Positions 8,860 to 64,000 of a DNA stretch of 64,000 bases are shown one piece after another. The position numbers and the translations under genes are program-made. The stretch's first letter is position 1, and each line of letters starts with the position of its first letter. Source of the DNA: Sinonovacula constricta (lineage: Eukaryota > Mollusca > Bivalvia > Cardiida > Solecurtidae); contig CM017563.1 of the NCBI GenBank assembly GCA_007844125.1, forward strand, positions 40,740,512-40,804,511, in the 5' to 3' direction. Below the pieces are notes generated by a model. The model did not search any database. It was not told the DNA's origin and worked only from the letters and a program-made list of their open reading frames with translations.

Positions 8860-9140
8860 TGGTGACAAATACAGCACATACTAAACAACAAAACACAATG
8901 GCCGTGTCAAATACAGCACATACTGAACAACAATATACAATGGTCGTGGCAAATACAGCATATACTGAACTACAAAGAAAAATGGCCATGGGAAAAACAG
9001 CACATACTGAACAACAAAGAGCAATGGCCGTGACAAATACAGCACATACTGAACAACAAAATACAATGGCCGTGACAAATACAGCACACACTGAACAACA
9101 AAATACAGTGGCCGTGGCAATTACAGCACATATTGTACAA
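8860..9140. repeat. 42-bp minisatellite
   Basis: About 6.5 units of 42 bp ('gcacatactgaacaac...atggccgtg'). Because 42 is a multiple of three, the plus frame (8799-9221) and the minus-strand frames stay open, giving a 14-residue repeat in each. There is no signal peptide, splice context or homology, so I treat the frames as a by-product. Confidence 0.85.
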
Positions 9141-18714: not shown

Positions 18715-19166
18715 TTTAAAAAGTACACCTGTCCTTGTGGCGTTTTGGCCATTTCCCATCCCAAAGGCAGGGGTTGTTCTTCTAAGAGAAGATCACAAGA
18801 ACGTTGTCGAGTATGTTGTGGTGGGGGTAATGTAGATAACTGAGTCTGTTGTAACATGGCTGGGGAGGACTGAGTTCTGCCATGAACAATTGTAGGTCCC
18901 CCAACACTATGGGCAACACTTAATGGGGGATTAGAATAACCAGTGGAATCTGTACTACCTTCTCTACTATGCGAAGTCTTGATTTCTTGCGGCTTCTGAG
19001 GAGTAGGGGGAGTGAAAAACGAAGCTGGCAACTTCCTCAACCGTAATGGAATGGCTGACGAATCGTTTGGATTAAGGGCTGCGTTAAACATAGCTTCCAA
19101 TTCATGGTCACTGTTCTCGCGAACATGGACAACTTGTGTCCCCTTCCTTTCGGTTCTGTCAGCCAT
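18715..19166 (-). CDS. YAP1: Yorkie/YAP transcriptional co-activator, first coding exon
   Basis: YAP/Yorkie is the nuclear effector of the Hippo pathway. It binds TEAD/Scalloped to drive growth genes and is held in the cytoplasm by LATS/Warts phosphorylation and 14-3-3. The exon gives 150 codons plus two bases. Residues 11-51 match the TEAD-binding region: 'QVVHVRENSD', an LxxMF helix at 23-27 and the omega-loop 'LRLRKLPASFF' at 41-51. Three LATS sites of form HxRxxS follow: HSREGS (66-71), HGRTQSSP (95-102, the 14-3-3 site) and HTRQRS (118-123). WW1 begins near 132 ('LPLGWEMAKTPQGQVYFL') and is cut by GTAAGT in phase 2, so the next residue is probably Asn as in YFLNH. I chose the ATG at 19166; the frame extends 19 codons upstream only to a TTG. 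The remaining exons are not in view. Confidence 0.93.
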
Positions 19167-20644
19167 TTTGGCTGGAAAATGCTGGTCTAACACTCGATCG
19201 AAACTTAATACACACTGTGACAAACGTTATCCTCACCGCTGGACAGACTTCATACAGAAAATCCCGAAAAAATCCTGAGTAACTTATACATTTGATCGGA
19301 CACCATTGAAACTTTTTACGAAAATTGGTTAGGATTAACCGTGCACTACTGAACAGGTACTTTATTCATCCGCTAAAGAAATAGGTCTCGGTAAATAACG
19401 CTCGCTTTGTTTAACTAAGCAACAATTTTTAAATGTATTGTAAAATCTAGATAGATTATTTGAATATGTTATCATGCAAAATAGTGAGACGGCAAATACT
19501 TCAGAATAACAACACAACGTAAATGGAATGATGATTGTGTATATCACTACGCGTAATAAATTGACGTCACTCTCTGACCTTTTTCTCGGTACGTCCCAAA
19601 CAGCGATCCATACATAAACATAGCGGTGGCAAAGATGTTCTTTTTGAATGAGTTTAAAATATAAAATTGACACCACTTTTAAGTTCCTTTTCTGTAGCCT
19701 AGACAGTAAAACGCAAAGTCATCTTATAACATGTATACAGGCGATTTACTTATGTTGTTTTGTAAATGCTGCTTTATAATTAGGCCCATTTGTAGGTCAC
19801 GTAAAAGTTCACCGACTGGACACGCCCATTTTATCAGGGTCGGCCGTCTGAGTGCCAAATATAGACATTTCCGCATACATACGGAAATTACCGGTTGTTT
19901 CCGAATATTCATTAAATACATGCTGCTATTAATTAAGGTCTTCGTCTGTTTTGTGATACTATGTTTTCCTCCCGGTTTAAATAAAGTTTATTTATTTAGA
20001 ACTTTTTTGTTTGGAAAAAGATGAAGAAGAGTTTTATTGCAAAGAGGTATAGTGGTAGTCATTTGTGATGGTAGTAGTAGAAAAAGTAATAATTGCGTTA
20101 GTGGTGTTAGTGATGGCCCTAGTTTAAGCAGCAGTAGAAGTTGTTGTTTATGGTTATGATGTAGATATGAAGAAAAATATGTAGCAGTTGTTTTTGCTTT
20201 AGCTTTTAGCAGAAGCAACTGGCAATGGATATTTCTGTAGTCAATATCGTTCTTGTAGATAGAGCAGATATTAAAATATGCGCGCAGCAGATTTTTCTTA
20301 TTTAAACCCACTGTCTCACGGAGGAACAATTTAAATATATGATAATTAGGCAACATTTATATTGTGCACAATAATTAATACGGTACTTAATCTTTTTCGT
20401 CTCATCCCAAGCACAGATATTAAAGGGAAGTAATCCAATACGACGAGCATCTAAATAACTACACAGTTACTCCCCTTAGAACACGTTATTGTCTTCTTGA
20501 TCAACGTATAATATATATCTTCTGTCTTTCTTTTTTTATAAATACACATATCTTTATTGTAATAATTTCAACATTCGAAACATGACATAAACAGCGTTGT
20601 TTCAAATGGATCTGATTTCTTTTCACTGCTTGCATTTGGGAAAC
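19167..20644. other. YAP 5' region / intergenic
   Basis: This would hold the YAP 5' UTR and promoter. The 170 bp above the ATG are richer in CpG than the surroundings, but no TATA box or other site can be assigned. 20040-20220 is a degenerate trinucleotide-like stretch (gtagtag, gttgtt) that creates a Leu-rich minus frame at 19988-20356, which I do not count as a gene. Confidence 0.4.
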
Positions 20645-27591: not shown

Positions 27592-29742
27592 GCGTCAATA
27601 AGGGTCGTTGTTCTCGGCGATGTCGCTGATGTTGGCTATCCAATGACATAACCAGGACACTCCATAATGGACCAACTAGAAACAAATTTTATTGAATAAC
27701 TATAAATTATTAGTCCTATAAAAAGCACCTGCCACGTTCAATAAGACGACGGCCTGCTTTAAAACAGTGCCAATATATATATCACTTTTTCGGTCCCGGG
27801 TCCTCGGACAAATAACAGGGTCAATATCAAATCACTTATATATTAACATATAAAGAAGATCTGCGAGATTCAGGATACCAATTGTGTATAGTTAATTAGT
27901 GTCATTGTTTACTGCTAGGGTTGGCTGGTGGTAAAGATCAGATAAAGAGCTAATGTGCTAGTAACCTCTTAGCTCAATTCAAATAAAGTATTTTATCACC
28001 CGAAAAGAGAATAAGATCCAGCTGTGTTGATGTCTAAATAAATAAGCTAGTCTTGATTATTAATGTAAGCTACGCATCTGAAGTGACAGTTCAAGTAATT
28101 CATGCAATATTTTATATAGTACTATTAATGCTGTGAACAGAATCAGAATTATATGAACACACCCTACACCAGGATGCACAGATATGCAATCGTTTGATCA
28201 CAGACTCCAGGAAAACCAACAATCCACTGTAGACACTGGTGTACTCAATTGCTTCTCTTTACAACCTGTTATTACTGATCAGTGAACGGAATTTCAAGTA
28301 ATTAGCACCCAGAAAGTACATAAATAATTCATAACAAATTTGTTGACTTTACTTATTTACTGAACTAATTTAGATCAAATGTTTATATACTACCGTAATG
28401 AATGATATCAATAAACATTCTGTTTCAGGAAGGGAGATGCCATATACTTTTACTAGTAGCTAGTCTACAGTAACTGCTATTCAGCCTCTTTAAGCTCCAC
28501 CCACTATATCTCTACCTATCTGTCTATCTATCTATTCGGTTCCCTACTGTTACTCTTATAGTTAACCCATACTCCAGCATCAATAAAAGAGTTTAAACAA
28601 TACTACTTTGGATAATAGTTTAACGCCCACATAGTGCCATTAAAAAGTTAACGTAAGAAGTTCATAATTTAATATCAGAAATATAACATGATATCAGAAT
28701 TAATGTATGTATCATGATGTCAGAATTGACGTACATAACAATTTATCAGAATTGAAGTATATAACATGGTGGCAGAATTGAAGTATATAACAAGAGTATA
28801 GCCAACAATTACACGAGTTCCCAGCAGTTTCACACAATCTGTGCATATATGAGCTCAGCGATATAAATAGTCCCGGCTTATATTCATACACTCATACAGT
28901 CAATATTCCGTGTAAAAGCCACAGAAGCTGTTCTACGCCTGAGCTATAAATAGCCGAGACGACATTTTCCGAGCATTCACCATACGAATATGTGAATATG
29001 TGCAGTCAAATGATAAAGGATGCATTTACACGTTCAGTGTTGTTATTTTGTGAAATGAACGCAGTCATCATACTCTGTTGTTAACATGATGTAATGTGGC
29101 ACAAATACAATTGGGACTTAAATGGAATAATTGAAATAAATAAGGAATAATGTTTTATGAAAAGAAAAGGATTAATAGAAATTATGCAATCCGGACTGAG
29201 TGATATTTAACCACGATGCACGCAGCTAAAGAAACATATTTATATGACTTTTTTTCTTACTTTTTACTGTTGAAATGACGAAAAATGTAAATGCACGCTG
29301 TGTCTAATATTCACCCACGCATTATCAATTTAACAAACACCAGCCAAAATTGAGACACCATATCATGCTTAAAATAGGCATGAACTCACACTTAGGACTG
29401 AAAATCTATATGAAAGGACGATTCAATGTTTCCATGCAGTGGAATTTTATAAACAGCATCGGAATTTATTTTTGTTTGAGAATGACTATGCCATGGTTTG
29501 GACCGCTGTATCCTTGGGATACTTTGACAAAGATAGTGTTTTATTAGCATAAAAGAGTAATAGAGGCAACAATCCACGTATCAGGTTCACGGGTATTGAT
29601 GAACTAAGACTTTATATGGAAATAAATACAATACAATGAGTTATTGACTTCGTATCAGGAGATGCACATAAAGGCACAGCTGGTCGATGGTTCGAAAGGC
29701 CGAAAAATTTGAGACAAGGTCACCGAATAGGTAATCCGAACA
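27592..29742. other. Region upstream of the ANK-Mab21 gene; no gene seen
   Basis: AT-rich. It should contain the promoter and any 5' UTR exon of the gene at 29743. The plus frame at 29350-29547 has no recognisable content. I cannot assign a TATA box or binding sites with confidence. Confidence 0.4.
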
Positions 29743-32457
29743 ATGTTTCTTACTCTTGTTGCAGTGATGGTAAAATTAATGACGCTCTTTCAGCAAATAA
29801 GAAAACATAAAACAGACACCATGCTTAGCCACGTAAAGGAAATTGTGTCAAGGAAAACAAAAACTCACGAAGATTTAAAGAAGCTGTTGGTAATGCTTAA
29901 AGACAGTGGGATACCCGATATTGAGTTAGGCGAGGTGCTATTTAGTGCAGTACGTATGAATGACCTTGACACTGCTACGGTACTGATTCAACATGGCGCC
30001 AATGTAAATTACGAAGACCATTTTAAACAGAGTCCACTTATGATCGCCGTGATTAATGACCATTCTTCCATTATTGAACTTCTTTTGGATAATGGAGCCG
30101 ATATAAACAGAATTAACCAAAATGGTCAAACTGATTTCATGATTTTAATGAACTCCGGAAAATCGGAATTGCGACGTTTGATAAACTTGCTCGATAACTG
30201 TAAACACCTCTCTGAGAAAGATATTCTTTCCGGTGGCTCTTTTTTACATATGGTACGGAAATATGTTTACGACCCTCTAAAACCTGCTATGATCAGCCGC
30301 CTGATCGAAAGAGGAATTTCTGTACATGACATTGACAATAATGGCGATACACCACTTCACCTTCTAAGTGCGATCGCATGCGTTGACTCAATAAAGATTC
30401 TTCTCGCAAATGGTGCCGATGTGAATGTCAGAAATAGAAAAGGAGAAACGGCACTGCACTATCTTGCACAAAGTAATGAATTAAAGGGATTTGCAGAATC
30501 ACTTAACGTCTTGATTGCAAACGGAGCAAATGTGAACGAGTTGGACGATCAAGGGCAATCCATTTGTCACCACGCTTTGTCTATCAAAGAAACAACACTA
30601 GAGTCAATTAAAACATTTATCCAGAGCGGGGTCGCAGTGAACGTTAGAGACATTTTTGGACGAAATGAATTTTTCAATGCTGTTGACAGTGTGAGATTTT
30701 CTGCGAGATATACGGACGAGGATGTTGACAGAAGACTAGATATCATTAAATATCTTATTGAACTTGGCGCTGACATTAACAACGGCGACAATTTGGGTAT
30801 AACACCTCTTCATTTAGCGTCCCGGAAGAACAGTCTAACACTGCTTGTTGGATTGATTGATCTTGGTGCAGACATTTCTCGGCGTACAAAGACTGGGGCA
30901 TTACCGCTTCACTGGGCATGCGCAAACTATAATATGGTTCACGTACTTGTCCATATTCACATTGAAACAGGTGTTGACATTAACATACAGGACGAGTACG
31001 GTTCTACAGCTCTGCACTGGGCGATTTGGTTTCGAAATGACGAGGCGGTCCAAACTCTTTTACAAGCAGGCGCAGATGATACAATTGTGGATTCTAAAAA
31101 CGAAACCCCTTCTATTCTGTCAAAACGATTACAATACGGATCGTTTAGCTTTATAAACGAACATTACGAAGAACTTGAGGGACTTGAACTTGAAAGCGGC
31201 GATCAGTTGCCATGCGTAAGAACCGATGATTTATTTGCTTGTCCTCAGTTAAGAAGCATAAAAGAAGAAAACGGCCATTTAGATCTAAAATTTTATCTGG
31301 AACACGTAGAACTACATACTCAGAATGTCAAGCATTTTAAAGATGTTGTTTTGGGAAGTTTAAACATGGGGTTTTATTATGAAGTCGATGAAAATATCGA
31401 TGTCCAGGAATTGATCAAGGATTTTGTCAATGAGGTTGCAAAGAAAGTTGCATCGAAACACCCATTATTCAAATGCGAGCTGGCGCTTGCCGGCAGTTTG
31501 TATGAAGAAACCAAGGTCTGTATTCCAGATGAATTCGACTTTATATGGTACTTAGTTGAATTCGAAAATGCATTTGTTTCAATGTATAGTAGCGATTGTC
31601 CAAGTGGCTATATACAGTTTCATGTACAGGACGATGACTTTGCTACACACTTCCAGAGGTTCATCAATAATGAAGGTTTTCTTGATTGTGGTTTGGTCCT
31701 TAGAGAGTTCTATAGCTGCGTGAACAATGAAGTGATTGAACTTTTGTGTAATCCCAAGGGAACTAGATTCCGTAATTTGTTGTGCCAGCAGTTTTTAAAT
31801 GAAATCTCTGCCAGTTTATCAAGTTTGAACTTGTGTTTTTTCGGACCTCAAGCTAAACTGATGACGGTGTCTTTGGACGTAGTTCCATCCATTAGAATCA
31901 ACGGTACCCAAATCGGGGCTATCACTGAGACAGTTTTGACTAAGCACTACATAGCACCGACGTGTCAAGTTGCAGCTGTTTTTAAAACCCCTGATAGATA
32001 CAATGTCAGAGATTTCTCACTATTTTTTAGACTCTCGTTTGCAAGTCTCGAACAATCGATCATTAGGGTCATTCCAGTCGAAGCCAAGAAAGGATACATC
32101 CTATTAAAGTCACTTATCGAATCGTTATACTTGCCGCGCGTTATTTCAGTTACAGAATCGCAAATTAAGCAGTTAGTGACCAGTTACAGACTGAAGACAT
32201 GTCTCATGCATGCTCTGGAAGACGCCATTAATGATGGCGGCGTTGACAGCGGCCCTCTACAGTGGAGCAAACGAATCGTGTGCACTTTTGAAAACTTTTT
32301 AGAGAAAAAAAACCTGCCAACGTATTTTGATGCAAGAAAGAATCTGTTCAGCCCGGAAGGAATGAAAGAAGGTATTACTGGAAAGGAAACATATTCTGAC
32401 CTTCTGACGATTTTGAAGCATTTGCTACTCGTCATGGATACGTACACTACCGATTAA
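29743..32457 (+). CDS. Ankyrin-repeat protein fused to a Mab-21/cGAS-like nucleotidyltransferase
   Basis: Intronless frame, 904 codons. Residues ~60-460 hold about nine ankyrin repeats, several canonical ('NGDTPLHLL' ~200, 'KGETALHYL' ~232, 'LGITPLHLA' ~351, 'YGSTALHWA' ~420). Residues ~530-890 are a Mab-21/cGAS-like domain: 'LAGSLYEETKVCIPDEFDFI' near 582-601 has the Gly-Ser plus Glu-x-Asp arrangement (GS 584-585, E597, D599) with the same spacing as cGAS; a third acidic residue lies in 'SLDVVP' (D712); the C-terminal helical part shows 'FRLSFASLEQ' (~760) and 'SYRLKTCLMH' (~814). All three metal-binding acids are present, so it may make a nucleotide second messenger; many Mab-21 proteins do not, so this is inference. 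No cGAS-type zinc thumb is seen. No signal peptide or clear membrane span: probably cytosolic. The first eight codons may be intronic, because 'cttactcttgttgcag' ends at 29764 like a splice acceptor; the next ATG is at 29767 (Met9). Confidence 0.93.
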   Translation: MFLTLVAVMVKLMTLFQQIRKHKTDTMLSHVKEIVSRKTKTHEDLKKLLVMLKDSGIPDIELGEVLFSAVRMNDLDTATVLIQHGANVNYEDHFKQSPLMIAVINDHSSIIELLLDNGADINRINQNGQTDFMILMNSGKSELRRLINLLDNCKHLSEKDILSGGSFLHMVRKYVYDPLKPAMISRLIERGISVHDIDNNGDTPLHLLSAIACVDSIKILLANGADVNVRNRKGETALHYLAQSNELKGFAESLNVLIANGANVNELDDQGQSICHHALSIKETTLESIKTFIQSGVAVNVRDIFGRNEFFNAVDSVRFSARYTDEDVDRRLDIIKYLIELGADINNGDNLGITPLHLASRKNSLTLLVGLIDLGADISRRTKTGALPLHWACANYNMVHVLVHIHIETGVDINIQDEYGSTALHWAIWFRNDEAVQTLLQAGADDTIVDSKNETPSILSKRLQYGSFSFINEHYEELEGLELESGDQLPCVRTDDLFACPQLRSIKEENGHLDLKFYLEHVELHTQNVKHFKDVVLGSLNMGFYYEVDENIDVQELIKDFVNEVAKKVASKHPLFKCELALAGSLYEETKVCIPDEFDFIWYLVEFENAFVSMYSSDCPSGYIQFHVQDDDFATHFQRFINNEGFLDCGLVLREFYSCVNNEVIELLCNPKGTRFRNLLCQQFLNEISASLSSLNLCFFGPQAKLMTVSLDVVPSIRINGTQIGAITETVLTKHYIAPTCQVAAVFKTPDRYNVRDFSLFFRLSFASLEQSIIRVIPVEAKKGYILLKSLIESLYLPRVISVTESQIKQLVTSYRLKTCLMHALEDAINDGGVDSGPLQWSKRIVCTFENFLEKKNLPTYFDARKNLFSPEGMKEGITGKETYSDLLTILKHLLLVMDTYTTD

Positions 32458-36569: not shown

Positions 36570-36694
36570 TTAGGGACATATCTTGCAGTAGTGAGCACAT
36601 TTGGTCATGGATCGACTGTGGTTCGGGCAGTCGGCGAATGACGTCACGTAGGAAGTGCCACAATCGGATGTGTCATGGCCGGCTTGGCAGTTCA
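36570..36694 (-). CDS. CAP gene A exon 10 (ShKT domain and stop)
   Basis: Acceptor 'atttctgcccag', starts 'NCQAGHDTSDC', Cys spacing C7C10C8C3C2C, ends 'CKICP' then TAA at 36572-36570. The spacing fits ShKT. Confidence 0.88.
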
Positions 36695-39600
36695 CTGGGC
36701 AGAAATGGATAAAAAATCACATCAATACAGTTAAAGCAACATGGGAAAAATCGGTGAATTTTGTTGTTAAAAGCATTTCTCTAAATAGATAATTCATGTA
36801 AAACTACAGCGAATTGTGTAAGAATGTTGTCCTTTAAGGGAAGGGCAAGTGTAATGCTGCACTTTCGATTGTAGAGAATCCAAAATATGGCTTAATGCTT
36901 CGAAACAGGGGTTATTTGTTAAAATTCCCGTATGGTCATGTTCGGTCAACTTTTCTTTTACGTTGTCAGTGTATTTCTGTATCACTAATACTAGTTAATG
37001 AAGGAAGCACGCGTCTTTTTTATTTTTCTTATTTTCTTTAATTGTGGTATATTTGATAAAAATGCTTTACCTTGGGCTATTCAAAGTCTAAAAAACCAAA
37101 CAATGTGGTAAACATATTTAATTTTTGGAAGGAGCAACCAAATTACTATAGAGAACATTTTGAGCAACTTTGCAATACATACTATGGCTCAAGGTCGAAT
37201 CCGGAAATGTTTGTTGTGTGGTGGGAATGAATCAAGATTCATTCAACCTTATCGCAGTAAATACTATACATATGTTTATATATACAGTAAGGGATCCTAA
37301 CTTCGACCCAAGCAGTCAACAGACAAAATTTACTTTAAAAGCTTAGTATTTTTAAGCTTACATTTATGTGTATTCACAACTCTACTCCTTTACCTGGTTG
37401 GTGCGAGGATGCACAACTTGTTACCTACTTCCCCCATAACTGAATCCATCTCTGCTATGGTTATCTAAAGCTCGGCGAGTTTTAAGCAACTGGCAAAAGC
37501 ATGTATAAGTTATTTAAACAATTTATGGCATATTTGGGATAGTTTGATTCAAACCAATCAAACAATATGTTATTATTATTTTCCAAACGATACTAAATAG
37601 CTCGCAAACTTTCATGTGGATGTTTTCCGGATAACCTGCTTTGTGCCGGCGGTTCTTTCTTCGTCAATAATTAGCTGGACGTCGCCAATATGACAGAATT
37701 TGTCAGTGCGATGTATCAAAAACACACAAACAAACACTACTTACTATGGCAGTCGGCCCCTTGGAGGTAGGAGATTGAAGGACATGTACAAGCTAGAGTG
37801 TTAAGATTCATTGTCCCACCGTTCATGCACATCTTGCCCTTGGAGTCTACAAAGGAAGTGTGTGTCTGGACAATAACAAGTTAACATGTAATTCTTTCCA
37901 GTTATGATCAATCCTGAGCTTGGAAACAACATAATCAGTTGGAAACAACAAAATCTGTTGGAAACAACATAATCAGCTGGAAACAACAAAATCTGTTGGA
38001 AACAACATAATCAAATAACTGAATCAGTTAGTAACAAGATAATCAGTCGGAAACACCATTATTAGTTTTAAACAACATAATAAGTTGGAAACGACATGAT
38101 CAGTTGGAAACAACATGACCAGTTGAAAGCAACATAATCATTTGGAAACAACAGACTCTGTTGGAAACAACATAATCAAATAACATAATCAGTTGGAAAC
38201 AAAATTATCAGTTGGAAACACCATTATTAGTTTTAAACAACATAATAAGTGGAAAACAACATGATCAGTTGGAAACAACATGATCAGTTAGAAACAACAT
38301 AATCAGTTGGAAACAACATAATAAGTTGGAAACAACATGATCAGTTGGAAACAACATAATAAGTTGGAAACAACATGATCAGTTAGAAACAACATAATCA
38401 GTTGGAAACAACATAATCAGTTGGAAACAACATGATCAGTTGTAGGTTATAAATGATTTACAGAATATATAATTAAATGGATAAATAAATAGTCCAGAGA
38501 AAATGGGGAAATAACCCAACATTATATAACAAAGCATTTATCGGTAGAATAAACAAATTACCAAATAAGCAACAAGAAAGATAAAAACACAAAACAAGTC
38601 ACAAACATACAGCCAGTAAGATAAACAAGCTAGCAAACATACCCATCGTGATAATCAAACTGCCGAACGAGCAACGAACAGATAAACATTGTATCAGGCA
38701 TTTAACTAATAAGACAAAAATGTAAAAAACAACAACAACGCGAATAAACGGGGGAAAACAACTAAAGAGGCAACAGGCAGTACACAGGCTAAAGATAGTA
38801 AAATAAATAAAGTAATAAAACAACCAAGCAAAAAGCTAAGTTATCAGCACGAAATCACATGGTCAGTTAGATAAATAAAGTAACAAAGAACCAGCTAGAT
38901 TTACACAAACACGACCACTCAGATAAACAAATAAACACACTACCGGTTAGGTAAACAAAGTAACAAACAACAAGTCACATAAACAAGGTAGCTAATAAAC
39001 AACCAGCTTGATAAACAAAGTAACAAATAAACAACCAGCTTGATAAACAAGGTAACAAATAAACAACCATCTTGATAAACAAAGTAACAAACAAAAAGTC
39101 ACATAAACAATGTAACAAATAAACAACCAGCTTGATAAACAAAGTAACAAACAACAAGTCATATAAACAATGTAACAAATAAACAACCAGCTTAATAAAC
39201 AAGGTAACAAATAAACAACCAGCTTGATAAACAAGGTAGCAGATAAACAACCAGCTTGATAAACAAGGTAGCAGATAAACAACCAGCTTGATAAACAAGG
39301 TAGCAAATAAACAACCGGCTTGATAAACAAGGTAGCAAATAAACAACCGGCTTGATAAACAAAGTAACAAACAACACGTAACATAAATAAGGTTACAAAT
39401 AAACAACAGATTGATTAACAAAGTAGCAAAAACATGTAACATAAACAAGGTTACAAATAAAGAACCAGCTTGATAAACAACGTAACAAACAACCAGCTTG
39501 ACAAAGTAACAGATAAACAACCAGCTTGATTTACAAAGTAACAAATAAACAACCAGCTTGATTTACAAAGTAACAATCAAACAACCAGCTTGATAAACAA

Positions 39601-42600
39601 CGTAATAAACAAACAACTTGACAAAGTAACAAATAAACAACCAGCTTGATAAACAAAGTAACAAACAAACAAACAAACGAACGAACAAACAAACGAACAA
39701 ACAAACGACAAGTTTGATCCCTACCGCACAATCCATTGTTACAGTGATGTGTGCAGTCAGCGCATGGGGTTCCTTTCTTGTATGGGGTGAATTTCGTATT
39801 GTGGTTGTTACCGCTTTAAAGACAAACAAATCGGTTATGTTAAGCAGACAAAATACATAAAATCAGCAAGTACACCTCCTCCTCTCATCCGTGAATAAGA
39901 ATATAATTTATACTAGGTTAAATTATGTTGACAAGTGTGCATTTAAAATACTGGAAACATGTTTACGGATATCGTCAATAGATTATGACAACTTTTTTTT
40001 TTTCAATATTCCTCATAAGCAGTTTCAAACCATTACGTTTGGGAAAAGTTGAGTAATCGAATATTTTATAACTTATTTCATTTGGTAAGCTGAAACTGAA
40101 TCCCAAACTAAGATAAAATATTTCTTGTACTCGTCAGCGTTCAAAACCCAAAGAGAGACAGCGGTGCTGCTTAGAGTAAAGTGCAAAGAAAAGTCCCTCT
40201 TTGAGTATTTGGTCTACATTGTTTCGACCCAAATAAATGCTATTTATTAACATTTGCTTAATGAATTAGCTTCTTAAGCTAAAATTATGGGCTTTTCGAC
40301 AAAAAGACATCCGATAAAATTTAAAATACTGACATCTGATTGGGTGAAAAATTAGGTTAAACGTGAATCAAACTTTATAACACTATTCTTTTCAGAATTC
40401 CTGTAAGTCTTCAGTTGTAATTTAAGACATGCTTGATGGATTAGCTTCATCGTCACGTAAAGCTTCATCATATGTTAGCCTCAAGAACAGCTTAAACATA
40501 TGTAAGCCGCATCGCGATGAACAGCTTAAACATATGTTAGACTCATCGCCAAGAACAGCTTAAACATATGTAAGCCTCATCTCCACGAACAGCTTAAACA
40601 TATGTAAGCCGCAACTCCACGAACAGCTTAAACATATGTAAGACTCATCTCCACGAACAGCTTAAACATATGTTAGTCTCATCGCCACAAACAGCTTAAA
40701 CATATGTTAGTCTCATCTCCACGAACAGTTTAAACATATGTAAGCCCCATCTCCACGAACAGCTTAAACATATGTTAGTCTCATCGCCACGAACAGCTTA
40801 AACATATGTTAGACTCATCGCCACGAGCAGCTTAAACATATGTTAGTCTCATCTCCACGAGCAGCTTAAACATATGTTAGACTCATCGCCACAAACAGCT
40901 TAAACATATGTTAGTCTCATCGCCACGAACAGCTTAAACATATGTTAGTCTCATCGCCACGAACAGCTTAAACATATGTTAGTCTCATTGCCACGAACAG
41001 CTTAAACATATGTTTGTCTCATCGCCACGAACAGCTTAAACATATGTTAGACTCATCGCCAAGAACGGCTTAAACATATGTAAGCCGCATCGCCACGAAC
41101 AGCTTAAACATATGTTAGTCTCATCGCCACGAACAGCTTAAACATATGTTAGACTCATCGCAACAAACAGCTTAAACATATGTTAGTCTCATCGCCAAGA
41201 ACGGCTTAAACATATGTAAGCCTCATCTCCACGAACAGCTTAAACATATGTTAGACTCATCGCCAAGAACGGCTTAAACATATGTAAGCCGCATCGCCAC
41301 GAACAGCTTAAACATATGTTAGTCTCATCGCCACGAACAGCTTAAACATATGTTAGACTCATCGCCACAAACAGCTTAAACATATGTTAGTCTCATCGCC
41401 ACGAACAGCTTAAACATATGTCAACCTCATCTCCACGAACAGCTTAAACAACTGTTAGTCTCATCGCCACGAACAGCTTAAACATATGTAAGCCTCATCT
41501 CCACGAACAGCTTACACATATGTAAGCCTCATCGCCAAGAACGGCTTAAACATATGTAAGCCGCATCGCCACGAACAGCTTAAACATATGTTAGTCTCAT
41601 CTCCACGAACAGCTTAAACATATGTAAGCCTCATCTCCAAGAACAGCTTAAACATATGTTAGTCTCATCGCCACGAACAGCTTAAACATATGTTAGTCTC
41701 ATCTCCACGAACAGCTTAAACATATGTAAGCCTCATCTCCAAGAACAGCTTAAACATATGTAAGCCGCATCGCCACGAACAGCTTAGACATATGTTAGCC
41801 TCATCTCCAAGAACAGCTTAAACATATGTTAGTCTCATCTCCACGAACAGCTTAAAATATGTCAGCCTCATCACCACGAACAGCTTAAACATATGTAAGC
41901 CTCATCGCCAAGAACAGCTTAAACATATGTTAGTCTCATCGCCAAGAACAGCTTAAACATATGTTAGACTCATCGCCACGAACAGCTTAAACATATGTTA
42001 GTCTCATCTCCAAGAACAGCTTAAACATATGTTAGTCTCATCTCCACGAACAGCTTAAACATATGTAAGCCTCATCTCCAAGAACAGCTTAAACATATGT
42101 TAGACTCATCGCCACGAACAGCTTAAACATATGTAAACCTCATCTCCACGAACAGCTTAAACATATGTAAGCCTCATCGCCAAGAACGGCTTAAACATAT
42201 GTAAGCCGCATCGCCACGAACAGCTTAAACATATGTTAGACTCATCGCCAAGAACAGGTTAAACATATGTAAGCCGCATCGCCACGAACAGCTTAGACAT
42301 ATGTTAGCCTCATCTCCAAGAACAGCTTAAACATATGTTAGTCTCATCTCCACGAACAGCTTAAAATATGTCAGCCTCATCACCACGAACAGCTTAAACA
42401 TATGTAAGCCTCATCGCCAAGAACAGCTTAAACATATGTTAGCCTCATCGCCACGAAATTTTAAATAAATGTTTTTGCCACGCCGCAAGAAAAACAGACC
42501 TTTATTGGGAATTTCTTTTTTTGGCATTGAAATGGTTGCATTTGCTGATTCAATATTTATATCGGGTACAACCAGTATATCTGTTCCATGATGATACTAA

Positions 42601-44786
42601 TAATCATACAGATACTTACGCAGGGGCGTAGTTGCAGACGAAAAAGTGGTTGGGCTTTGAGCTGCAATGGGCATAACCACAGCCAACTTTGTACGTTTCT
42701 GCCCACATGATCTGGTAAAAGAAACAAAACTTGATTCTTAAATACATTGTTGTTGATCTCAATCAGAATTTTACGTCAAAAGACCGATTCAATGTCTCTA
42801 AAATGTCATGGCTCAGCCCAAGATTCCAGACTGGAAGAGGCCGACAAATAATAGGACGGAGCGAATTGGCTTTACATAAATATTTTTTGAGAAGATGAGC
42901 AGGTGTGACTTCATGTCACGAATTATGGCATGCTTTCATACTGAAGTCAACACCGTCAACATAATCTCGAGACTTTACAAGGAAGATAAGCAAGAACAGT
43001 AAGAACCTGTGTGTAATGACCGACCGCTCCACCCTGGTCCGCTTCGGAACCCCCGTACACGAAATCATTAACCTCGTCTCCCCACTTGTCAATGGCGTGT
43101 GTCCAGTTGTTGTTGCTGCTCGAGTAGTAAATGTTTTGGCCCACGGAGCTCACCCCTTAAAGAGGAACACACAACGTTATTACTGGTCGATTAGGAGATG
43201 TTTAGGCACACGGAGCTCACTCCATAAAGAGGAACACACAACGTTATTACTGATCGATTAGGAGATGTTTTGGCCCACGGAGCTCACCCTATAAAGAATA
43301 ACACACAACGTTATTAGTCGTCGAAAGGTAGCTGCTCTGACCCACATAGCTCACGCCTAACAGTGAAAAAAGATAACGTTTTTACTCGTCGAAAAGTTGA
43401 TGTTCTGGCCCACATAGCTCACGCCTAACAGTGAAATAGATTACGTTATAAATCGTCGAAAAGTAGATGTTCTGGCTCACATAGCTCACGCCTAACAGTG
43501 AAATAGATAACGTTATTACTCGTCGAAAAGTAGATGCTCTGGCCCCAAAAGCTCACGCCTAACAGTGAAATAGATAATGTTATAACTCGTCAAAAAGTAG
43601 ATGTTCTGGCCCACATAGCTCACGCCTTACAGTGAAATAGATAACGTTATTACTCGTCGAAAAGTAGATGTTCTGGCCCACATAGCTCACGCCTAACAGT
43701 GAAATAGATAACGTTATAACTCGTCAAAAAGTAGATGTTCTGGCCCACATAGCTCACGCCTTACAGTGAAATAGATAACGTTATTACTCGTCAAAAAGTA
43801 GATGTTCTGGCCCACATAGCTCACGCCTTACAGTGAAATAGATAACGTTATTACTCGTCAAAAAGTAGATGTTCTGGCCCACATAGCTCACGCCTTACAG
43901 TGAAATGCATTTGGCTGTTTCTGCGCAAACAGTATAAGTTCTGACCTGCGGGGACAACTCATTATTAAAAAATAGATAACGTTATAACTAATCTAGTGGT
44001 ATATGTGCTGCCCTACGGAGCTTCCGTCTTAAAGTGAAATGCCTTATGCTGTCAGGGCCGTGCCAGGGTTTATGCATTAAATGTGGTATCCGACAGTTTG
44101 GTCCATTTTTTCTAAAATAACCAAATAAGTTATTGCTACGTGAAAGGTTATTGCAAAATGCTGCCCATTCATGCCAACAATCAGTGTGAGCAGTCCAGGA
44201 TAAATCTTCACTCGTCAATGCAAACAGAAGTTTCTAATCCGAGCCACGCTGCAGAGATAACTATTTTTGAACTTAGAAAACCACGTGACCACTTATTTTT
44301 ATATAGGTATCTGGGTATTCCGCTCTGACATCGATATCTATTTTTAACAGAGACCACTACCGCGCTTGTCATAGTGTTAAAAAGATTGAACATTTAGAGA
44401 ATTTTTGCGATTAGTACAGTCTACCAATAAAGTTAGTGTTCAAAATTGTCTGTATAAGACTAATGTATGGGTTTATGCGAAAGGCATGACCAATTTCCAA
44501 AAGCAGTGGTTAGATATTGACACGTGTATTTAATATAGGGGAACTGTCAGATACCAGCTATAACGCAGTGTGAACAGTTGATTAAAAAAAAGAATTAAAG
44601 TCGATAGAATATAAATAAGTTCAACTGCGTGCAGAGTTTTGATTATTCTTTTTTGTAGAGAACGTTCCTTTGTCCGTAATGTATGAAGAATATTATTCTA
44701 AGGGGACATTCAATCGATTTATTTCTGAACAATAATGTTTAGACGAAATTTTGGTGATAAAAACCTTTCAAAATGCATTTTAAGGC

Positions 44787-44869
<83 letters not shown>

Positions 44870-47152
44870 GATTGTAACCCTATACAAATAAAGCTTTCTT
44901 TTGTTTTGCTTATACTGAATTATCACGGAGCACGGCAGGATTATGTATCCGCTTACATTGAGTAATTAGATGACATTTACAGTCGACAAAGATTTCTTAT
45001 GTCCAAAAAATAAATACGGGCGGCACAAGGTTTGAACCGGGTCGCGACATACTGAAGTCGTTAAAAATGGAAGTGGTATAGCTCCCTTGCTAACGCTCAA
45101 GCAAATATGAGGGTAGTTCCACGACTGGTGTCAGGATAATGTGACTGGGTGTGCTGTCATGCATGTTCACGGCATGCTATACATAGTGAAGGCAGCACTA
45201 TATCTTCTTCAAATGAACACCGTCTACAGATAACTGAAATACTGTTGGTGGGACGATAAACCCAATAAACATAAACAGATTGCCGAAATGGAATTATTTT
45301 GCACATAAATTACCGACTTGGGGTTTACGATAACCGACATGGAGTTATTAGGCCGTCTATATTTCCAACATGGAATTAATCCAATTTAAAAATTACCGGA
45401 ATTGAGTTAATATGCCGTATTAAATACCGACATTAAGTTAAATGCCAATACAGGCATTGAGTAAATAGTCTGCCTTAAGTCTCGACATCGATTTTTTGTA
45501 AAAAAAATAAATACACACATACTTGACTATAAACAGCCACAAGATAAATGTTAAATAACCTAGAAACCTAATGTCATACAATACATGTAACTGGGTAAAA
45601 AGAAAGATCAATTGATCAGCAAGAGCAATGCATGTGTAAGTGGTTTACAAATTTACACGATAGTATATATATATTGTTTTGCCTGAAAATCCCCTTCTTT
45701 AGTATTGTTTTAAGGATGTAATTTTACAATACACAATCCTGTGTAATATTTCCGAACCCTGGACACACACTATCACAATATCAGGAAGTGCGAGTCTAGT
45801 GCTCTGTCTACCGGTCTAAGCAATCCAGTCGGTCCATTTTGCCGACTGACCCTCCCAAGTTGGCCACTATTGGGCTTGCCTTTTTTTGTTAAATGACTTA
45901 TCACAGGTATGCTCTTATCTTTACATTTTGCTTACATGTGAATACTATTGTACAGTGCCTTTTCAAAAGTAGGTATGTGTTGCTTATTACTATATAACAT
46001 CAATGTGTTGCGAGTTGTTGACCACATGATGACTTCATAGTACTACTCAGGTTCTACTTCTGTATGATATTATTAAAAATATAACCTAGCGGCTTGTAAT
46101 GAGTATGCATTTTAGAAGAATCTAACGATAAACGGTGCATGAGAAATATCATGTTCACATGTCCGTACCTATGTGGTATATTGGGGACATGAAGCGATTT
46201 CTGCGAAATTAACAAATCTTTCAATTTCACATATGTTATCTTTCAATGCCTGTATGCAGGCGCGTATCTGGGCCGTTTTTGAAGTTACGCACACTTACAA
46301 GGGAAATAACCTTTGTAGTAATACTTTTGAATATATTCGTTTTTTTTCTAATGAAAAACAGGTAAAATGCGGACATGCGAGGAACTTAACGCAAAATATG
46401 AACGACCTTTTCAACTTGAATGGCGTGGTAATAAGATTTTATAACATAGAAACTGGGGAAATAAAATATATCATTCCTATCCCGGGAAAGGTATCGATAT
46501 TCTTAGTGTTTTTGGTACTTTTGGATTTTCCGAATTTTCGAACGGAGGTTACGCACGTGCGTAAAGTGCGTAATGGCAGAAACGCGCCTGCCTGTATGCA
46601 CGAATTTCAGCGTAGTACACCCGGTTTGGTGGGTGTCCCCGATTGGTAGGTGTGTATTCATACAACTGTCCCCGATTGCCATCAAATACATACGCACACA
46701 CGCGCGCACACACACGCGCGCGCACACACACAAACTCCAAAGCGATGGTGCGTATAATCGAATTGGGTCCAAGCAAGCCCCTGTTTGATACTTACAAAGT
46801 AGCAGTTGTTCCAAGTAACGCCTTAAATAAATTACATTTGTGTTGCTGAAGATTATTTTGATCCAAGATGCTCAAGCCTTTACACATACAAAACAGTATT
46901 ACTAGTCGAGACTGTTCTTACGAACGAGGATAACCAAGTGTTCGCGATTGATCCTATGCGAGGAAAAGAAAGTAAATAGAATATTTCTTACGGAAATTGT
47001 GTCTATTGTAGTTGTCGTCGTGGGACCAGACACAATGCTCAGCCCATTTCTGAGCAATGGCGGCAATCTCGTCATCCCAGGTCTGTCCGAAATGCATAAG
47101 TATTATTATTATTATAATAATAATTATTATTTTTATAATTATTATTATTATT

Positions 47153-47225: not shown

Positions 47226-50200
47226 CCATCATCACTAACATCACCAAAATCATCATCACAAGCACCACGATCATTGCTACCACCACCACAATTATCAATG
47301 TCATCATCATCATCATCATAATCATCATCATCATCATCACCACTACCATCATCATCACCATCATTTAATGCCAGCACCTACCAGAACCACCATGTTGGTT
47401 GAATGCACGGAGCGCCTCCACCAGTTGTGACGATTGACAATCTCAGTCTTGGCCGCGTTGGTCACACCTGCGCAAAAGATAGTCGTGTCACAATGATAAA
47501 TGGCTGTTTCTTCTGTTCTGTTCTATGTTTCACTAGCATTCGGACTCAACGGTGTAACAAGCGTAAAGGCTCGTACGCCTTGCTCAAACTATGCAGTAGG
47601 ATATGTTGACACTTTAGTGGAGTCATAATATTTTGTATTTGAGTTTAATCCTAACAAGTATAGAAACTTGTTGACCTGTTGAAAATATGAATATATTTGA
47701 CGTGTTTTATTTCCATTTGTTCGTTTTTGCTTGACTCTGTTGCGCTCTGAACCCTACCCCATTCCATTCCCCTCTTTTGTACTCCAATACGCGCCACTTT
47801 ATTGCATTGTCATCTACTCAACTGTATTTCACTTTACTGAACTTCTCTCTTCTGCTTTAAGTACTTCTCTCCACTATATTGAACTACTCTCCATTATACT
47901 GCACTGCACTCTACTCCACTTTACAGTCTACTGCACCTCAGTCTGCTGCGTTTAGCTCAACTGCTTTCCACTCTACTGCACTCTATTGCATAGCGCACTA
48001 CTCCACCCTATACTTCAACACTTCACGCTACTACACTCCACCATATTTCACTTTGATGTGCTTCACTCTACCTCTCTGCACTTTATTGCACTGCTCCCAA
48101 CTTCACTTCTCTCCTATCTACTCCATTCGACTTTACTATGTTCCACTGTACAATGCCCAACTCTACTGATCTATACTATACTGCACTGTACTCCACTCTC
48201 CACTGCAATACACATTATTCCTTTCCCATTTTACCGTTCTCTACTATATGTTCTCCACTTTTACGGCTCTCCACTCTACTTCTCTCTATTATACTGCAGT
48301 GCTATTCACTATAATCCGTGCTAATGCACTCCACTCTACTGCACTTAACATTGCTGAGCTTTCACATTCCACACTGCATTCATCTCTACTCCAGTCCACT
48401 TTACAGTGACTCACTCTACTGCAATCAACTCTATCCCTTTCCTATTGTACGGTTCTCTACTATACTGCTCTTCACTTTACTGCTTGACTCTGTTCCACAC
48501 AAATGTACTTTCTCCTCTCTACTGTACCACACTCTACTCCAATATATTTAAATGCGTTCTACTAAAATTTCGCATTTACTGCACTGCACTTCACTCTATT
48601 GTTCTTAACTCTACGCCTTCCCTATAAACTCAACTCTTGTCTACGATACCTCACGGCACTGTACACTACTGCGCTTCAATCCTCTGCAGTCCACTCTAAT
48701 GCAATGTTCTCCGATAAAATGCATGCTGCTCCAACATACACCACTGCAATTCTACTTGACTTTACTCTACTGTAGTGTACCCTTACTGCACTTCCCGCTA
48801 CTGTACTGCTCTTCGCTCTACTGCTCTCAAATATACTACTTTAAATTCCATTTGTATGCGATCCGTTATTCTATACGCTACTGCATTCCACTTTAATATT
48901 CTGGCCTGCTCTCAAATACACTGCAATCCACCCCACTCCACTCCACCGCACTCCACTCTACTGCACGTTACATTCCACTGCTCTACGCCCTAATCTAATC
49001 TACTCAAGTGCGCTTAACCTGACTTTACTCTTCTTCATGTTTCTGTTCTGCGCTTCATGCTACCGAAATCCCTTCCACGCTACTGCTTTCCATTTCACTC
49101 CAATCTCCTGCACTCTACTCCTCTCCACTCCACGTACTTGCATTTACGACAATCCACTTCATTCTACAACATAATACTGTACTTCAGTCAACTGCACTGC
49201 AACCTTCTTAACATCACTTCTCTCATCCGCACTCTTTTATACGCCACTTAACTTGATTACTCTAGACTACTCTATATTTGCCTCTATTACACTCCACTCG
49301 ACCCCACTCTACACTAGTCTACTCCAGTCTACGGTTCTGCTATCATTATTGTAGAGACCCACTTTAACTTCACTCCACCCCCATCCCATATTCATTTGTA
49401 ATCCCCATTATTCCACTCCAATTTACTTCCCTTTACTCCACTTCACATTACTACACTTTACTACCGTCTGCTATATTCAACTACACTCTACTCTACACCA
49501 CTACACTCTACCCCTACCCACAGCACATTACTACACTAAACTATCCTATACTATATTCAACCCCACTCCACTCTACTCTACTACATTCTACCCCAACCCA
49601 CAGCACATTACTACACTATACTACCCTCTACTATATTCAACTCCACTCTACTCTACTCTACTACACTCTACCCTAACCCACAGTACTTTACTACACTATA
49701 CTACCATCTACTATATTCAACTCCACTCTACTCTACACCAATACACTCTACCCCAACCCACAGTACTTTACTACACTATACTACCCTCTACTATATTCAA
49801 CCTCACTCTACTCTACTCTACTACACTCTACCCCAACCCACAGTACTTTACTACACTATACTACCCTCTACTATATTCAAACCCACTCCACTCTACTCTA
49901 CTACATTCTACCCCAACCCACAGCACATTACTACACTATACAACCCTCTACTATATTCAACCCCACTCTACTATACTCTACAACACTCTACCCCAACCCA
50001 CAGCACATAACTACATTATACTACCCTCTGCTATATTCAACCCCACTCCACTCTACTTTACAACACTCGACCCCAACCCACAGTACTTTACTACACTATA
50101 CTACCCTCTACTATATTCAACTCCACTCTACTATACTCTACAACACTCTACCCCAACCCACAGTCCTTTACTACACTATACTACCCTCTACTATATTCAA

Positions 50201-55544: not shown

Positions 55545-55725
55545 CGGGCCGACCAGGCGTGGAAGTACTCTTATTATTTCTTTGAGCGTAAGCAAGGATG
55601 ACATATCACTAACATTGTAACGGCTTCGGTATGTGTCGGCCTTGGATCATTGTATTGGTTCTGTATCACTAACATTGTAACGGCTTCGGTATGTGTCGGC
55701 CTTGGATCATTGTATTGGTTCTTTG
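55545..55725 (-). mobile_element. SINE family 2-like fragment with an exact 60-bp duplication
   Basis: 'gggccgaccaggcgtggaag' and 'gagcgtaagcaagg' resemble family 2. Then 60 bp ('tatcactaacattgtaacgg'...'tgtattggttct') occur twice back to back (about 55604-55663 and 55664-55723) without visible change, implying a recent duplication. Confidence 0.65.
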
Positions 55726-61223: not shown

Positions 61224-64000
61224 CTGGAAGAAATAAAACTTTAAGATTACATTTAAAGCCATGCGCTAGAACGAAAAGATATTTACAGAAAGAGGTGACG
61301 TATTTGGTGGAAAATGAGTAGGAAAAGGCAAGGTAGGCAACCGTTCTTAGAGCAATGATTTTATCAGGATATTCGCTATACAGATGGTGATAAAACAATG
61401 CCAGTCTTCTTTGCAGTTATCTCCCTTTCAAATTCGGATCTGAAGGAGATGCCACGGTGATTTGTCGATAGATCTACTAGCGCTATCGCATAAATTATAC
61501 TTACTTTCATTAAGACGCAACAATTAATTTGATTATATTAAATAAAATTATAAAGAATTATAATGCTCTAAATGACCTTAAAGAACTATTTTCTGTTTAA
61601 CTGTACATGGTGCTAAGGTCTTACCTGGACACATGCCACACAGCTGGGAACACAGGCAAGGCAAGCTACTGTGCATGAAGCCGTGGTCTTACCGGGGCAT
61701 ATGCCACACCGATGGGGACACAGGTAAGGCAAGTTAATCTACATGGAGCTAAGGTCTTACCTGGACATATGCCACACAGATGGGGACACAGGTAAGGCAA
61801 TTTAATCTACAAAGAGCTAAGGTCTTACCTGGACATATGCCACACAGCTGGGAACACAGGTAAGGCAAGCTATTGTGTATGAAGCCGTGGTCTTACCGGG
61901 GCATATGCCACACCGATGGGGCCACAGGTAAGGCAAGTTACTGTACATGAAGCTAAGGTCTTACCTGGACATATGCCACACAGATGGAAACACAGGTAAG
62001 GCAATTTAATCTACATGGAGCTAAGGTCTTACCTGGACATATGCCACACAGATGGAAACACATGTAAGGCAATTAAATCTACATAGAGCTAAGGTCTTAC
62101 CTGGACATATGCCACACAGATGGGGACACAGGTAAGGTAGGTTACTGTACATGGAGCAATGATCCTTGGTGTACACATTGCCGCCACAGTGTCTCTCGTC
62201 AGGTCCATGGGAACAGTTCACTGAAATATATTTATCCCCATCCTCATCACTGCATCATCCACCTTCTCGACCCCCCGCCACCTCAATTATCATCCTCCAC
62301 ATCCTCCTGCCCCTCCTCCTCACCATCATCAAAATTATCTTTCTCGACACCATCATCAGCAGCAGTAGCAGTAGCAGTAGCAGCAGTACCACTGCCACCA
62401 CCACCAGTAACAGACTCATCATTGCCCTTCTGTTCTTTGCCGTCATTATCAAGTTTCCGTTTTTTTTCCGCAAATGCACAAAACGCTTGATATCTGTTTG
62501 AACCTCCATAATAAAAAACAACAACATAAAGACTGAACTTTTTCCGAAGGTTTTAAATGAACGAAATCTAGAAACGTTTTATTTTTAAGTCGATCACTTA
62601 CTTTCACACGTTGCAGAGCCAGTGTAGTAATTAAGATTCTGGCAGTGGCAAGTGCACGTAGACAGTGTCATTGTACCGCCATTGTTGCAGACCTTTCCTC
62701 CACAGTCTGAAAAGTGATCATTTTATCTTGTGTTTTTATATATAGCCTCAACACATTTTATCCGGCCCACATTACAGGTGAAACCTATGTTTTACTTTAT
62801 TTTAGTATTGTCAAATAAAAAAACAACATATTTTCATTCTTATGTTATCCTTACATTTTAGGGCGTAGTTATACAATCGTATATATATTGTACAGACATA
62901 TTTAGTTTATAACTGAACAATGGTTTTCTTCTTTGATACTAAGTCAAAAAGTCCATTACAAAAAAAGAATAATAAAATAAAATTAAATATGTGTCTTATT
63001 GAATTGTCATTTACGAGAAAAAAAAACATCAATAAGATTGATTTTTTTTTATCGAGTCGAAATTTATTTCCATGCGGATCTTTCATCTTTATTTATTCAA
63101 GTTACTCAGAGCAAAACAACAAATGGGGAAAATATATGCCTTGTCCTATCAAAATGCAAGTTACTAAAGGAATAAAGAAATTTCACCTACTGCAGAGTTT
63201 GTTTGTGCAATGCGAACTGCACTCAGCACACGCTGTACCCTTCTTGTATGGCGTATACTTAGTCTTGACGTCATTCCCTCTGAGGAGAAACGAAAGGACA
63301 GAAAATTATATATTATTATTTATATTGTGAACAAAGAGAGTGTATGAAGTAGACACCTCTCAAGAGTGGAAACTAAACGTAGAATACAAAATAACATCAT
63401 TTGCTAAGAGGGCTGTTTGGTATACCAATGTTTATCATGGCATGTACTTACGAACAGGCTGTTTTATTTACAATGTTTATCACGGCATGTACTTACGAAT
63501 CGGGCTGTTTTGTGTGCAATATTTATCACGGCATGTACTTACGAACCCGGCTGTTTTGAAAACCAATGTTTATCACGGCATATACTCACGCTGGTGAGTA
63601 GTTGCAGACGTAGAAGTGGTAGGGGCGGCCCTGGCAGTGAGTGTAGCCACACCCCACCTTGCTGGTCTCCGCCCACATGATCTGTCACGTGCACAAGAGA
63701 AAATGTGTAAACAATTTTCATGATATAAAGTTACATTTTAGTGCAGGAAAGTAAGTCAGTTTTTCATTACAATAAAATATTTCTTATTCTGATACAAGCA
63801 CCAAATTTGGTACAGATGATATTAACACATTTTGAAGATGGACGACTGCGGCCATATCAAATTTGGCCATTACGTCATCATGGCAGTGAAACATCTCGAA
63901 GAAAAACTCATGTGCTGGCATCAATCTACTTTAAGAAGGTGAGAAATTTATTCCAGCATTGCTTTTGCCTACAAGAAAAGGTTTTGTTCTGTTTATTCAT
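61207..64000 (-). CDS. CAP gene B: 3' half of a CAP-EGF-ShKT paralogue, runs off the window
   Basis: Exons on minus: 63681-63590, 63279-63191, 62706-62602, 62220-62101, then a proposed last exon 61223-61207. Lengths and phases of the first two equal gene A exons 7 and 8 (92 and 89 nt), proving common origin. Domains: second half of CAP ('IMWAETSKVGCGYTHC', 'FYVCNYSPAGN'), Cys-rich hinge, EGF-like with all six cysteines, ShKT (C7C9C9C3C2C). Unlike gene A, the ShKT exon does not end in a stop but in a donor (phase 1), so a short last exon is needed. The 5' exons should lie beyond 64000. Probably a secreted protein like gene A. Confidence 0.85.
61621..62100. repeat. 68-bp array made of ShKT exon 3' ends with splice donors
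   Basis: Seven units of 68-69 bp. On minus each repeats the exon text 'ccttacctgtgtccccatct' + 'gtgtggcatatgtccag' followed by GTAAGAC. Units alternate between types (for example 'gaagccgtggtcttaccggg'), with a larger period of about three units (~205 bp). Several units carry TAG where the exon has a Tyr codon. Confidence 0.92.
62101..62220 (-). CDS. CAP gene B ShKT exon
   Basis: Acceptor 'aaatatatttcag', 39 codons 'NCSHGPDERHC...' to 'CPHLCGICP' plus G, donor GTAAGA. Its last ~60 bp plus donor recur seven times downstream. Confidence 0.88.
62340..62405. repeat. (AGC/AGT)n trinucleotide run
   Basis: 'catcatcagcagcagtagca' then 'gccaccaccacc', in the intron between the gene B EGF and ShKT exons. 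Confidence 0.85.
62602..62706 (-). CDS. CAP gene B EGF-like exon
   Basis: Acceptor 'ttttcag', starts 'CGGKVCNNGGTMTLSTCTCH', six cysteines, donor GTAAGT, phases 1 and 1. Confidence 0.88.
63191..63279 (-). CDS. CAP gene B exon equivalent to gene A exon 8
   Basis: Acceptor 'gtttctcctcag', 'GNDVKTKYTPYKKGTAC' to 'CTNKLC', donor GTAGGT. Confidence 0.9.
63424..63589. repeat. 46-bp array made of CAP exon donor copies
   Basis: Units begin at about 63429, 63474, 63520 and 63568. On minus each reads 'cgtaagtacatgccgtgata' + 'aacattg'. The last is the real donor flank of exon 63590-63681 ('cgtgagtatatgccgtgata'). Confidence 0.88.
63590..63681 (-). CDS. CAP gene B exon equivalent to gene A exon 7
   Basis: Acceptor 'gtgcacgtgacag', 'IMWAETSKVGCGYTHC' to 'FYVCNYSP', donor GTGAGT, phase 2. 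Confidence 0.92.
63682..64000. other. Intron of gene B to the window edge
   Basis: No exon equivalent to gene A exon 6 is visible before the edge. 'caccaaatttggtacagatg' and 'ccatatcaaatttggccatt' suggest a dispersed repeat. Confidence 0.45.

What the first reader, a model, noticed from the sequence alone, without database searches (positions are those of the whole stretch)
43007..44030. Minisatellite built from a splice acceptor plus the start of a CAP exon
Seen: about twelve 67-bp units next to CAP gene A exon 6 each hold an AG acceptor and ~45 bases matching the exon's first codons, in the same phase ('VSYVGQNIYFSTSNN' versus 'VSSVGQNIYYSSSNN'). The array therefore arose from the exon edge and keeps acceptor-like text. 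Inference: it could provide alternative acceptors, produce aberrant transcripts, or be kept because unequal exchange with the exon continues.
Basis: partly seen in the sequence, partly recalled or inferred. Interest (0 to 1): 0.8.

Follow-up and report, generated by a model that had tools for sequence, protein, structure and literature searches.

The report
Intron repeats copied from exon edges
In a probable bivalve gene, a short stretch spanning the start of an exon has been copied over and over into the neighbouring intron, and two more arrays nearby look alike; this resembles the "mirage" repeats known from lancelets.

Summary
On the minus strand, the 149-bp CAP exon at 43007-43155 is preceded by 13 tandem 67-bp units (11 well kept, 2 degenerate) at 43156-44027. 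Each repeats the intron's 3' end plus the exon's first ~45 bases: 29-39 of 45 match, against at most 25 in shuffles. A database protein equal to the spliced gene A over 223 residues (longest contig 1242 bp) shows the exon's own acceptor in use. Reading from any of the 13 unit positions (10 with an AG) meets a stop after 10-37 codons. Alternative use is possible but unsupported. The finding is not isolated: gene B, a second CAP gene at 61.6-63.7 kb, has a 68-bp array repeating the last ~57 bp of an exon plus its donor, and a 46-bp array repeating an intron start with its donor. Best explanation: neutral boundary minisatellites like amphioxus "mirages" (PMC3087553), seeded by tandem duplication across a splice junction, turned over by unequal exchange and kept on the intron side by coding constraint. 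The mechanism is not new; a mollusc host and three arrays in two neighbouring genes extend it. The genome-wide test did not complete.

The parts
43007..43155 (-).
   Evidence: Pfam PF00188 together with its neighbour exons; exon limits from the spliced model that contains P0001 residues 2-224 exactly
43156..43157 (-). AG of the acceptor used in P0001
43156..43289 (-). Units U1 and U2, nearest the exon, with the same intron part as the exon; no AG exactly at the site (U2 has one 1 base on)
43290..43893 (-). Units U3-U11, the inner block; AG at the site in 9 of 9; one extra base (43357) beside U4
43894..44027 (-). Units U12 and U13, degenerate far end
   Evidence: 29 of 45 exon matches each, at most 22 in 1000 shuffles each; U12 fails the local-alignment test
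46992..47082 (-). Gene A exon A2, whose donor faces the array
47382..47467 (-). Gene A exon A1, first exon recognised here; donor confirmed by P0001, acceptor predicted
42620..42711 (-). Gene A exon A4
39725..39813 (-). Gene A exon A5
37745..37846 (-). Gene A exon A6
36570..36694 (-). Gene A exon A7 up to its stop codon
63590..63681 (-). CAP gene B exon B4, 74% identical in protein to A4; limits predicted
63411..63589 (-). 46-bp array starting at the donor of B4: the donor (GTGAGTA) and three copies with GTAAGTA
62101..62220 (-). Gene B exon B7 (cysteine-rich; limits predicted)
61604..62100 (-). 68-bp array: seven copies of the end of B7 plus donor word GTAAGA
   Evidence: 37-41 of the last 45 exon bases and GTAAGA in 7 of 7 copies; blastn 55-57 bp, E 1.2e-11 or better, 7 of 7

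Best explanation
The array is a boundary minisatellite. Shown: its unit is the last ~22 bases of the intron plus the first ~45 bases of the CAP exon, present 13 times outward into the intron. Inferred: a tandem duplication of 67 bp across the 3' splice site started it, and unequal exchange and conversion multiplied and homogenised the inner units. The block could grow only into the intron, because a 67-bp unit (not a multiple of three) inside the exon would break the reading frame. Splicing passes over the upstream copies and takes the exon's own acceptor, probably because that one has a full exon and a donor behind it (exon definition; general knowledge, not tested here). The array itself most likely does nothing; it is tolerated.
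For: Ungapped identity above every shuffle in 13 of 13 units. P0001, equal to the spliced model over 223 residues and from contigs of at most 1242 bp while the recognised gene spans ~10.9 kb, joins A2 to A3 at the exon's own acceptor. Reading from the unit position through to the exon meets a stop after 10-37 codons in 13 of 13, three of which lack an AG at that position. Turnover: U4-U10 agree in 59-67 of 67 positions, U12 and U13 in at most 47 with any other unit. Among U1-U11 (U12 and U13 left out) the units vary at codon positions 5/10/6 (1st/2nd/3rd), while the 5 differences private to the exon fall 0/1/4 (Fisher p 0.055). Two sister arrays sit at gene B junctions. Amphioxus genes show the same layout with regular splicing (passages of PMC3087553, and PMC3902484).
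Against: One protein record with two member sequences is thin proof of splicing; transcripts with an early stop would be removed and missed. The copies keep acceptor-like text (10-14 of 17 pyrimidines; real acceptors of genes A and B 7-15 of 17; AG in 10 of 13), so they may not be ignored entirely. U3 and U12 fail the local-alignment test. The codon-position contrast is not significant at 0.05. No data on array length in other individuals or species, so unequal exchange is inferred from sequence alone.
Confidence: 0.82

Rival explanations
1. Regulatory decoys: unit acceptors compete with the exon's acceptor, send part of the transcripts into stop codons and decay, and so set the gene's output by copy number.
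For: AG at the site in 10 of 13 units with a pyrimidine-rich stretch, and an early stop from each of 13 positions. In human IFI6, repeat units serve as splice donors (introduction and reference title in PMC4526556). In C. elegans a minisatellite is over-represented near alternative splicing regions (passages of PMC4039745).
Against: The only matching record uses the exon's acceptor; no truncated product among candidates (which only reaches proteins of about 41-130 aa sharing three 5-residue words). The two units nearest the exon have no AG exactly at the site.
Confidence: 0.1
2. A dispersed satellite or mobile element that carries similar sequence and landed beside the exon.
For: The window is rich in tandem repeats (70 TRF rows). 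The genome-wide test did not complete, so this is not formally excluded.
Against: The exon-like part encodes a conserved CAP segment; unit queries hit only this array and the exon in the window; the 68-bp array matches its own exon, not this one.
Confidence: 0.03
3. Assembly artefact: a short duplication falsely extended by the assembler.
For: Tandem arrays are hard to assemble; no reads were available.
Against: Graded divergence among units, two unit types that meet at U3, and degenerate end units are not what false copying of one unit gives; a like layout recurs at two other junctions.
Confidence: 0.05

Closest known systems
Amphioxus 'mirages' (Adh3; globins BflGb6 and BflGb9; named also for troponin C, and compared with PGBD5)
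   Same: Minisatellite-like tandem copies of an exon-intron boundary, at the acceptor side (BflGb6: 3' end of intron plus 5' part of exon 2) or the 3' boundary of an exon (BflGb9); many copies keep AG/GT; regular splicing; inner units homogenised, cluster boundaries excluded (passages of PMC3087553; one passage of PMC3902484).
   Different: A probable bivalve, not a lancelet; units of 67, 68 and 46 bp (10-72 bp in Adh3, 150-160 bp in globins); three arrays in two neighbouring genes.
Human IFI6 (6-16) minisatellite with multiple splice donors
   Same: A tandem repeat that multiplies a splice donor (introduction and reference list of PMC4526556; the original paper was not seen).
   Different: There two downstream repeat units are used as donors; here no use is seen.
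Variable internal tandem repeats at exon-intron boundaries of human duplicated genes
   Same: Minisatellite-sized repeats at exon-intron boundaries (passages of PMC2812944).
   Different: There the repeats start within exons and may turn into new introns; here exon and intron number are unchanged and the copies lie in the intron.
Intron gain by tandem genomic duplication (potato RdRp, PMC4974935)
   Same: A tandem duplication as source of splice signals (title and start of abstract in the listings; paper not opened).
   Different: There a new intron arises; here none.

Membership tests
Mirage-type boundary minisatellite | Tandem repeat unit that spans an exon-intron boundary | tested here: met
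   67-bp array at A3 (13 of 13 units above all shuffles by identity, 11 of 13 by local score); 68-bp array at B7 (7 of 7 copies). The 46-bp array at B4 does not meet it in full: its unit holds the donor but no exon sequence beyond chance (score 14, shuffle mean 17.1)
Mirage-type boundary minisatellite | Many copies keep AG or GT splice signals | tested here: met
   AG 10 of 13 (A3); GTAAGA 7 of 7 (B7); GTAAGT 3 of 3 (B4)
Mirage-type boundary minisatellite | Normal mRNA splicing despite the copies | tested here: met
   Only for A3, through one protein record, P0001; gene B gave no database candidate
Mirage-type boundary minisatellite | Concerted evolution with divergent edge units | tested here: met
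   Identity matrix of the A3 array
Mirage-type boundary minisatellite | Length instability between haplotypes or in soma | not testable with these tools
   One assembly only; no reads
Minisatellite supplying used splice sites (IFI6-like) | Transcripts that use repeat-borne sites | tested here: inconclusive
   None seen; RNA-seq not available

The most novel reading that the evidence does not exclude
Splice junctions in this genome are preferred birthplaces of minisatellites, and the arrays feed back on the genes: the exon's functional acceptor now sits on array sequence (a branch-like TAATAAC at -27 to -21, lies at the end of the exon-derived part of unit U1, and its last 22 intron bases match the intron part before U1 in 21 of 22), so splice sites are exchanged and renewed from a neighbouring stock of copies.
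Probability: 0.2. Interest if true: 0.65.

Novelty: new member of a known kind. Interest (0 to 1): 0.42.

Why it matters
The boundary arrays named mirages that my searches turned up are all from lancelets, where they were proposed as a step towards new introns (PMC3087553); human genes have tandem repeats at exon-intron boundaries too (PMC2812944). Three such arrays, one at an acceptor and two at donors, in two neighbouring genes of a probable bivalve suggest that the process is wider, perhaps common where genomes are rich in minisatellites. It offers a natural test of how the spliceosome picks one of many similar acceptors, and a simple genome-wide scan (array unit against nearest exon edge).

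Tried and rejected
Other arrays in the window as further exon-edge copies. From the 70 TRF rows I picked 17 arrays by hand; dropped were microsatellites and short periods, overlapping rows, and some two-copy rows (such as 48784-48823 and 49404-49462). Of these 17, 16 were scored against the exon edges of genes A and B (the 100-bp array at 1648-1964 was left out, as its row overlaps others). Only the 67-bp and 68-bp arrays beat their 100 shuffled units; the other 14, the 46-bp one among them, did not, so the 46-bp array is filed by its position and donor copies only. Arrays at 38952-39708, 37920-38442 and 40441-42457 lie 17, 74 and 163 bp from gene A junctions but show no exon homology.

Paralogous junctions: unit queries from the gene B arrays hit nothing at A7 or A4, so those arrays are not shared between the genes; the gene B counterpart of the A3 junction lies outside the window.

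Enrichment at junctions: 3 of 17 arrays contain one of 21 junctions; random placement of one unit per array gives a mean of 0.24 and reaches 3 in 0.11% of trials (9 arrays in 36.5-64 kb: mean 0.33, 0.33%). Without the given array, 2 of 16: mean 0.22, reached in 1.9%. Of 9 arrays in 36.5-64 kb, 4, 5 and 6 lie within 20, 80 and 165 bp of a junction, random means 0.10, 0.41 and 0.79, reached in 0 of 5000 trials each. All post hoc: the first array was the reason to look, the limits were set after seeing the distances, arrays were trimmed at exon edges, microsatellites were left out, and only genes A and B were annotated.

Selection on unit acceptors: not tested formally and not claimed. A 39-base mini-exon (unit acceptor to a GTAATA donor word) was considered and not pursued. 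Domain names: exons B6 and B7 look EGF-like and ShKT-like to me from memory, but Pfam matched neither piece at E up to 1 nor A7, so I do not use those names as findings. The first unit-to-exon comparison was off by one base; one search replaces it. Papers opened without a boundary array of this kind: abalone TSSK1-like (length-variable 27-bp minisatellite in an intron; passages), earthworm metallothionein (intron repeats and two exon 4 copies absent from the transcript; passages).

Full report
What is there. Gene A, a CAP (cysteine-rich secretory protein family, PF00188) gene, lies on the minus strand. Seven exons were recognised, at 47382-47467, 46992-47082, 43007-43155, 42620-42711, 39725-39813, 37745-37846 and 36570-36694. 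Spliced in silico they contain residues 2-224 of database protein P0001 without a mismatch. P0001 has two member sequences on two contigs, the longest 1242 bp, too short for the ~10.9 kb that the exons span, so it must come from spliced RNA. Its source is unnamed; among the best named relatives are bivalves (Tegillarca granosa, Ostrea edulis; 47-53% identity), hence 'probable bivalve'.

The array. Upstream of the 43007-43155 exon, 13 units of 67 bp run out to 44027. Each, in minus-strand order, is ~45 bases of exon-like sequence followed by ~22 bases of intron ending at the next acceptor. Ungapped matches to the exon's first 45 bases are 36 and 39 for U1 and U2 and 29-34 for U3-U13; 1000 shuffles per unit averaged 12-13 and never exceeded 25. 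By local-alignment score U3 and U12 did not pass the best of 1000 shuffles (19 against 31; 17 against 19), and the exon as blastn query finds 9 of 13 units at E up to 0.01; the weaker units rest on position in the array and ungapped identity. AG stands exactly at the site in 10 of 13.

Which came first. The G and Q of the exon's GQN are nearly invariant in the alignment of 13 CAP sequences, the query and P0001 among them. Among U1-U11, differences private to the exon fall at codon positions 0/1/4 and variation among units at 5/10/6 (Fisher p 0.055). U12 and U13 were left out of these counts; at one of the five private positions U13 shares the exon's base. So the exon looks constrained and the copies do not: the exon edge seeded the array.

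Turnover. U4-U10 agree in 59-67 of 67 positions; U12 and U13 reach at most 47 with any other unit; U1 and U2 agree with the exon in 57 of 67. From -22 to +25 U1 and U2 each match the exon in 43 of 47 positions (U4-U11: 32-37), from +26 to +45 in 14 of 20 (U4-U11: 11-13). I read this as a past exchange that ended near +25; direction unknown. In the 68-bp array of gene B, units three apart are the most alike (mean 0.891 against 0.842 for neighbours), a sign of exchange in three-unit steps; the 67-bp array shows no such period.

Splicing. P0001 joins A2 to A3 at the exon's own acceptor, the one furthest from the A2 donor. Reading on from any of the 13 unit positions meets a stop after 10-37 codons (three of the 13 have no AG there). 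A search with the predicted truncated product found no candidate; that search is blind to proteins outside about 41-130 aa and to decayed RNA. The branch-like word TAATAAC and the exon-definition argument come from general knowledge and were not tested.

Sister arrays. In gene B (exons at 63590-63681, 63191-63279, 62602-62706 and 62101-62220, predicted by homology and splice words; no database candidate) the end of the last recognised exon plus the donor word GTAAGA is repeated seven times: 37-41 of 45 exon-end bases, GTAAGA in 7 of 7, blastn pieces of 55-57 bp at E 1.2e-11 or better. This donor is predicted only. The homologous exon A7 ends in a stop codon right there, so this array could instead lie in a terminal exon; reading on meets a stop 26 codons past the exon end. 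At 63411-63589 the donor of exon B4 begins a 46-bp array with three more GTAAGT copies; no exon sequence is repeated there beyond chance.

Literature. Tandem copies of intron-exon boundaries were described in amphioxus as 'mirages' (passages of PMC3087553; one passage of PMC3902484). The first describes both boundary types, AG/GT in many copies, regular splicing, concerted evolution and a model for intron gain. The primary Adh paper is not held. Tandem repeats at human exon-intron boundaries are in PMC2812944 (passages), a donor minisatellite of IFI6 is cited in PMC4526556 (passages). Eight searches listed no paper whose title or abstract start reports a boundary array in a mollusc; I looked inside one mollusc paper (abalone, an ordinary intron minisatellite in the passages seen). 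The lists were cut (15 of 1,190), so this is no proof that none is in print.

Verdict. The functional inferences are unproven, and the plain reading is a tolerated boundary minisatellite. What raises its interest above ordinary is the recurrence at three junctions and a host group in which I found no report.

Noticed in passing
61604-62157 and 63411-63590 (minus strand): Two more arrays at splice junctions of a second CAP gene (68-bp and 46-bp units).
   Followed up: yes
61326-61359 (minus strand): A weak 34-bp match (79%, E 0.006) to exon B7 some 245 bp beyond the end of its array, possibly a relic unit.
   Followed up: no
29731-32457 (plus strand): A 908-aa open frame with ankyrin repeats and a Mab-21 nucleotidyltransferase domain (PF03281, E 1.6e-6); from memory, such proteins include cGAS-like receptors.
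   Followed up: partly
18711-19226 (minus strand): Open frame with a TEAD-interacting omega loop (PF15238, above cut-off) and part of a WW domain (below cut-off); from memory, like YAP/Yorkie.
   Followed up: partly
8799-9221 (plus strand): A 42-bp (14-codon) tandem repeat inside a 140-aa open frame; no Pfam match at E up to 0.01.
   Followed up: partly
55604-55722: Two tandem 60-bp copies with 100% match, a multiple of three; coding status unknown.
   Followed up: no
37920-42457: Three further arrays (19, 32, 34 bp) lie 74, 17 and 163 bp from gene A junctions without exon homology.
   Followed up: partly
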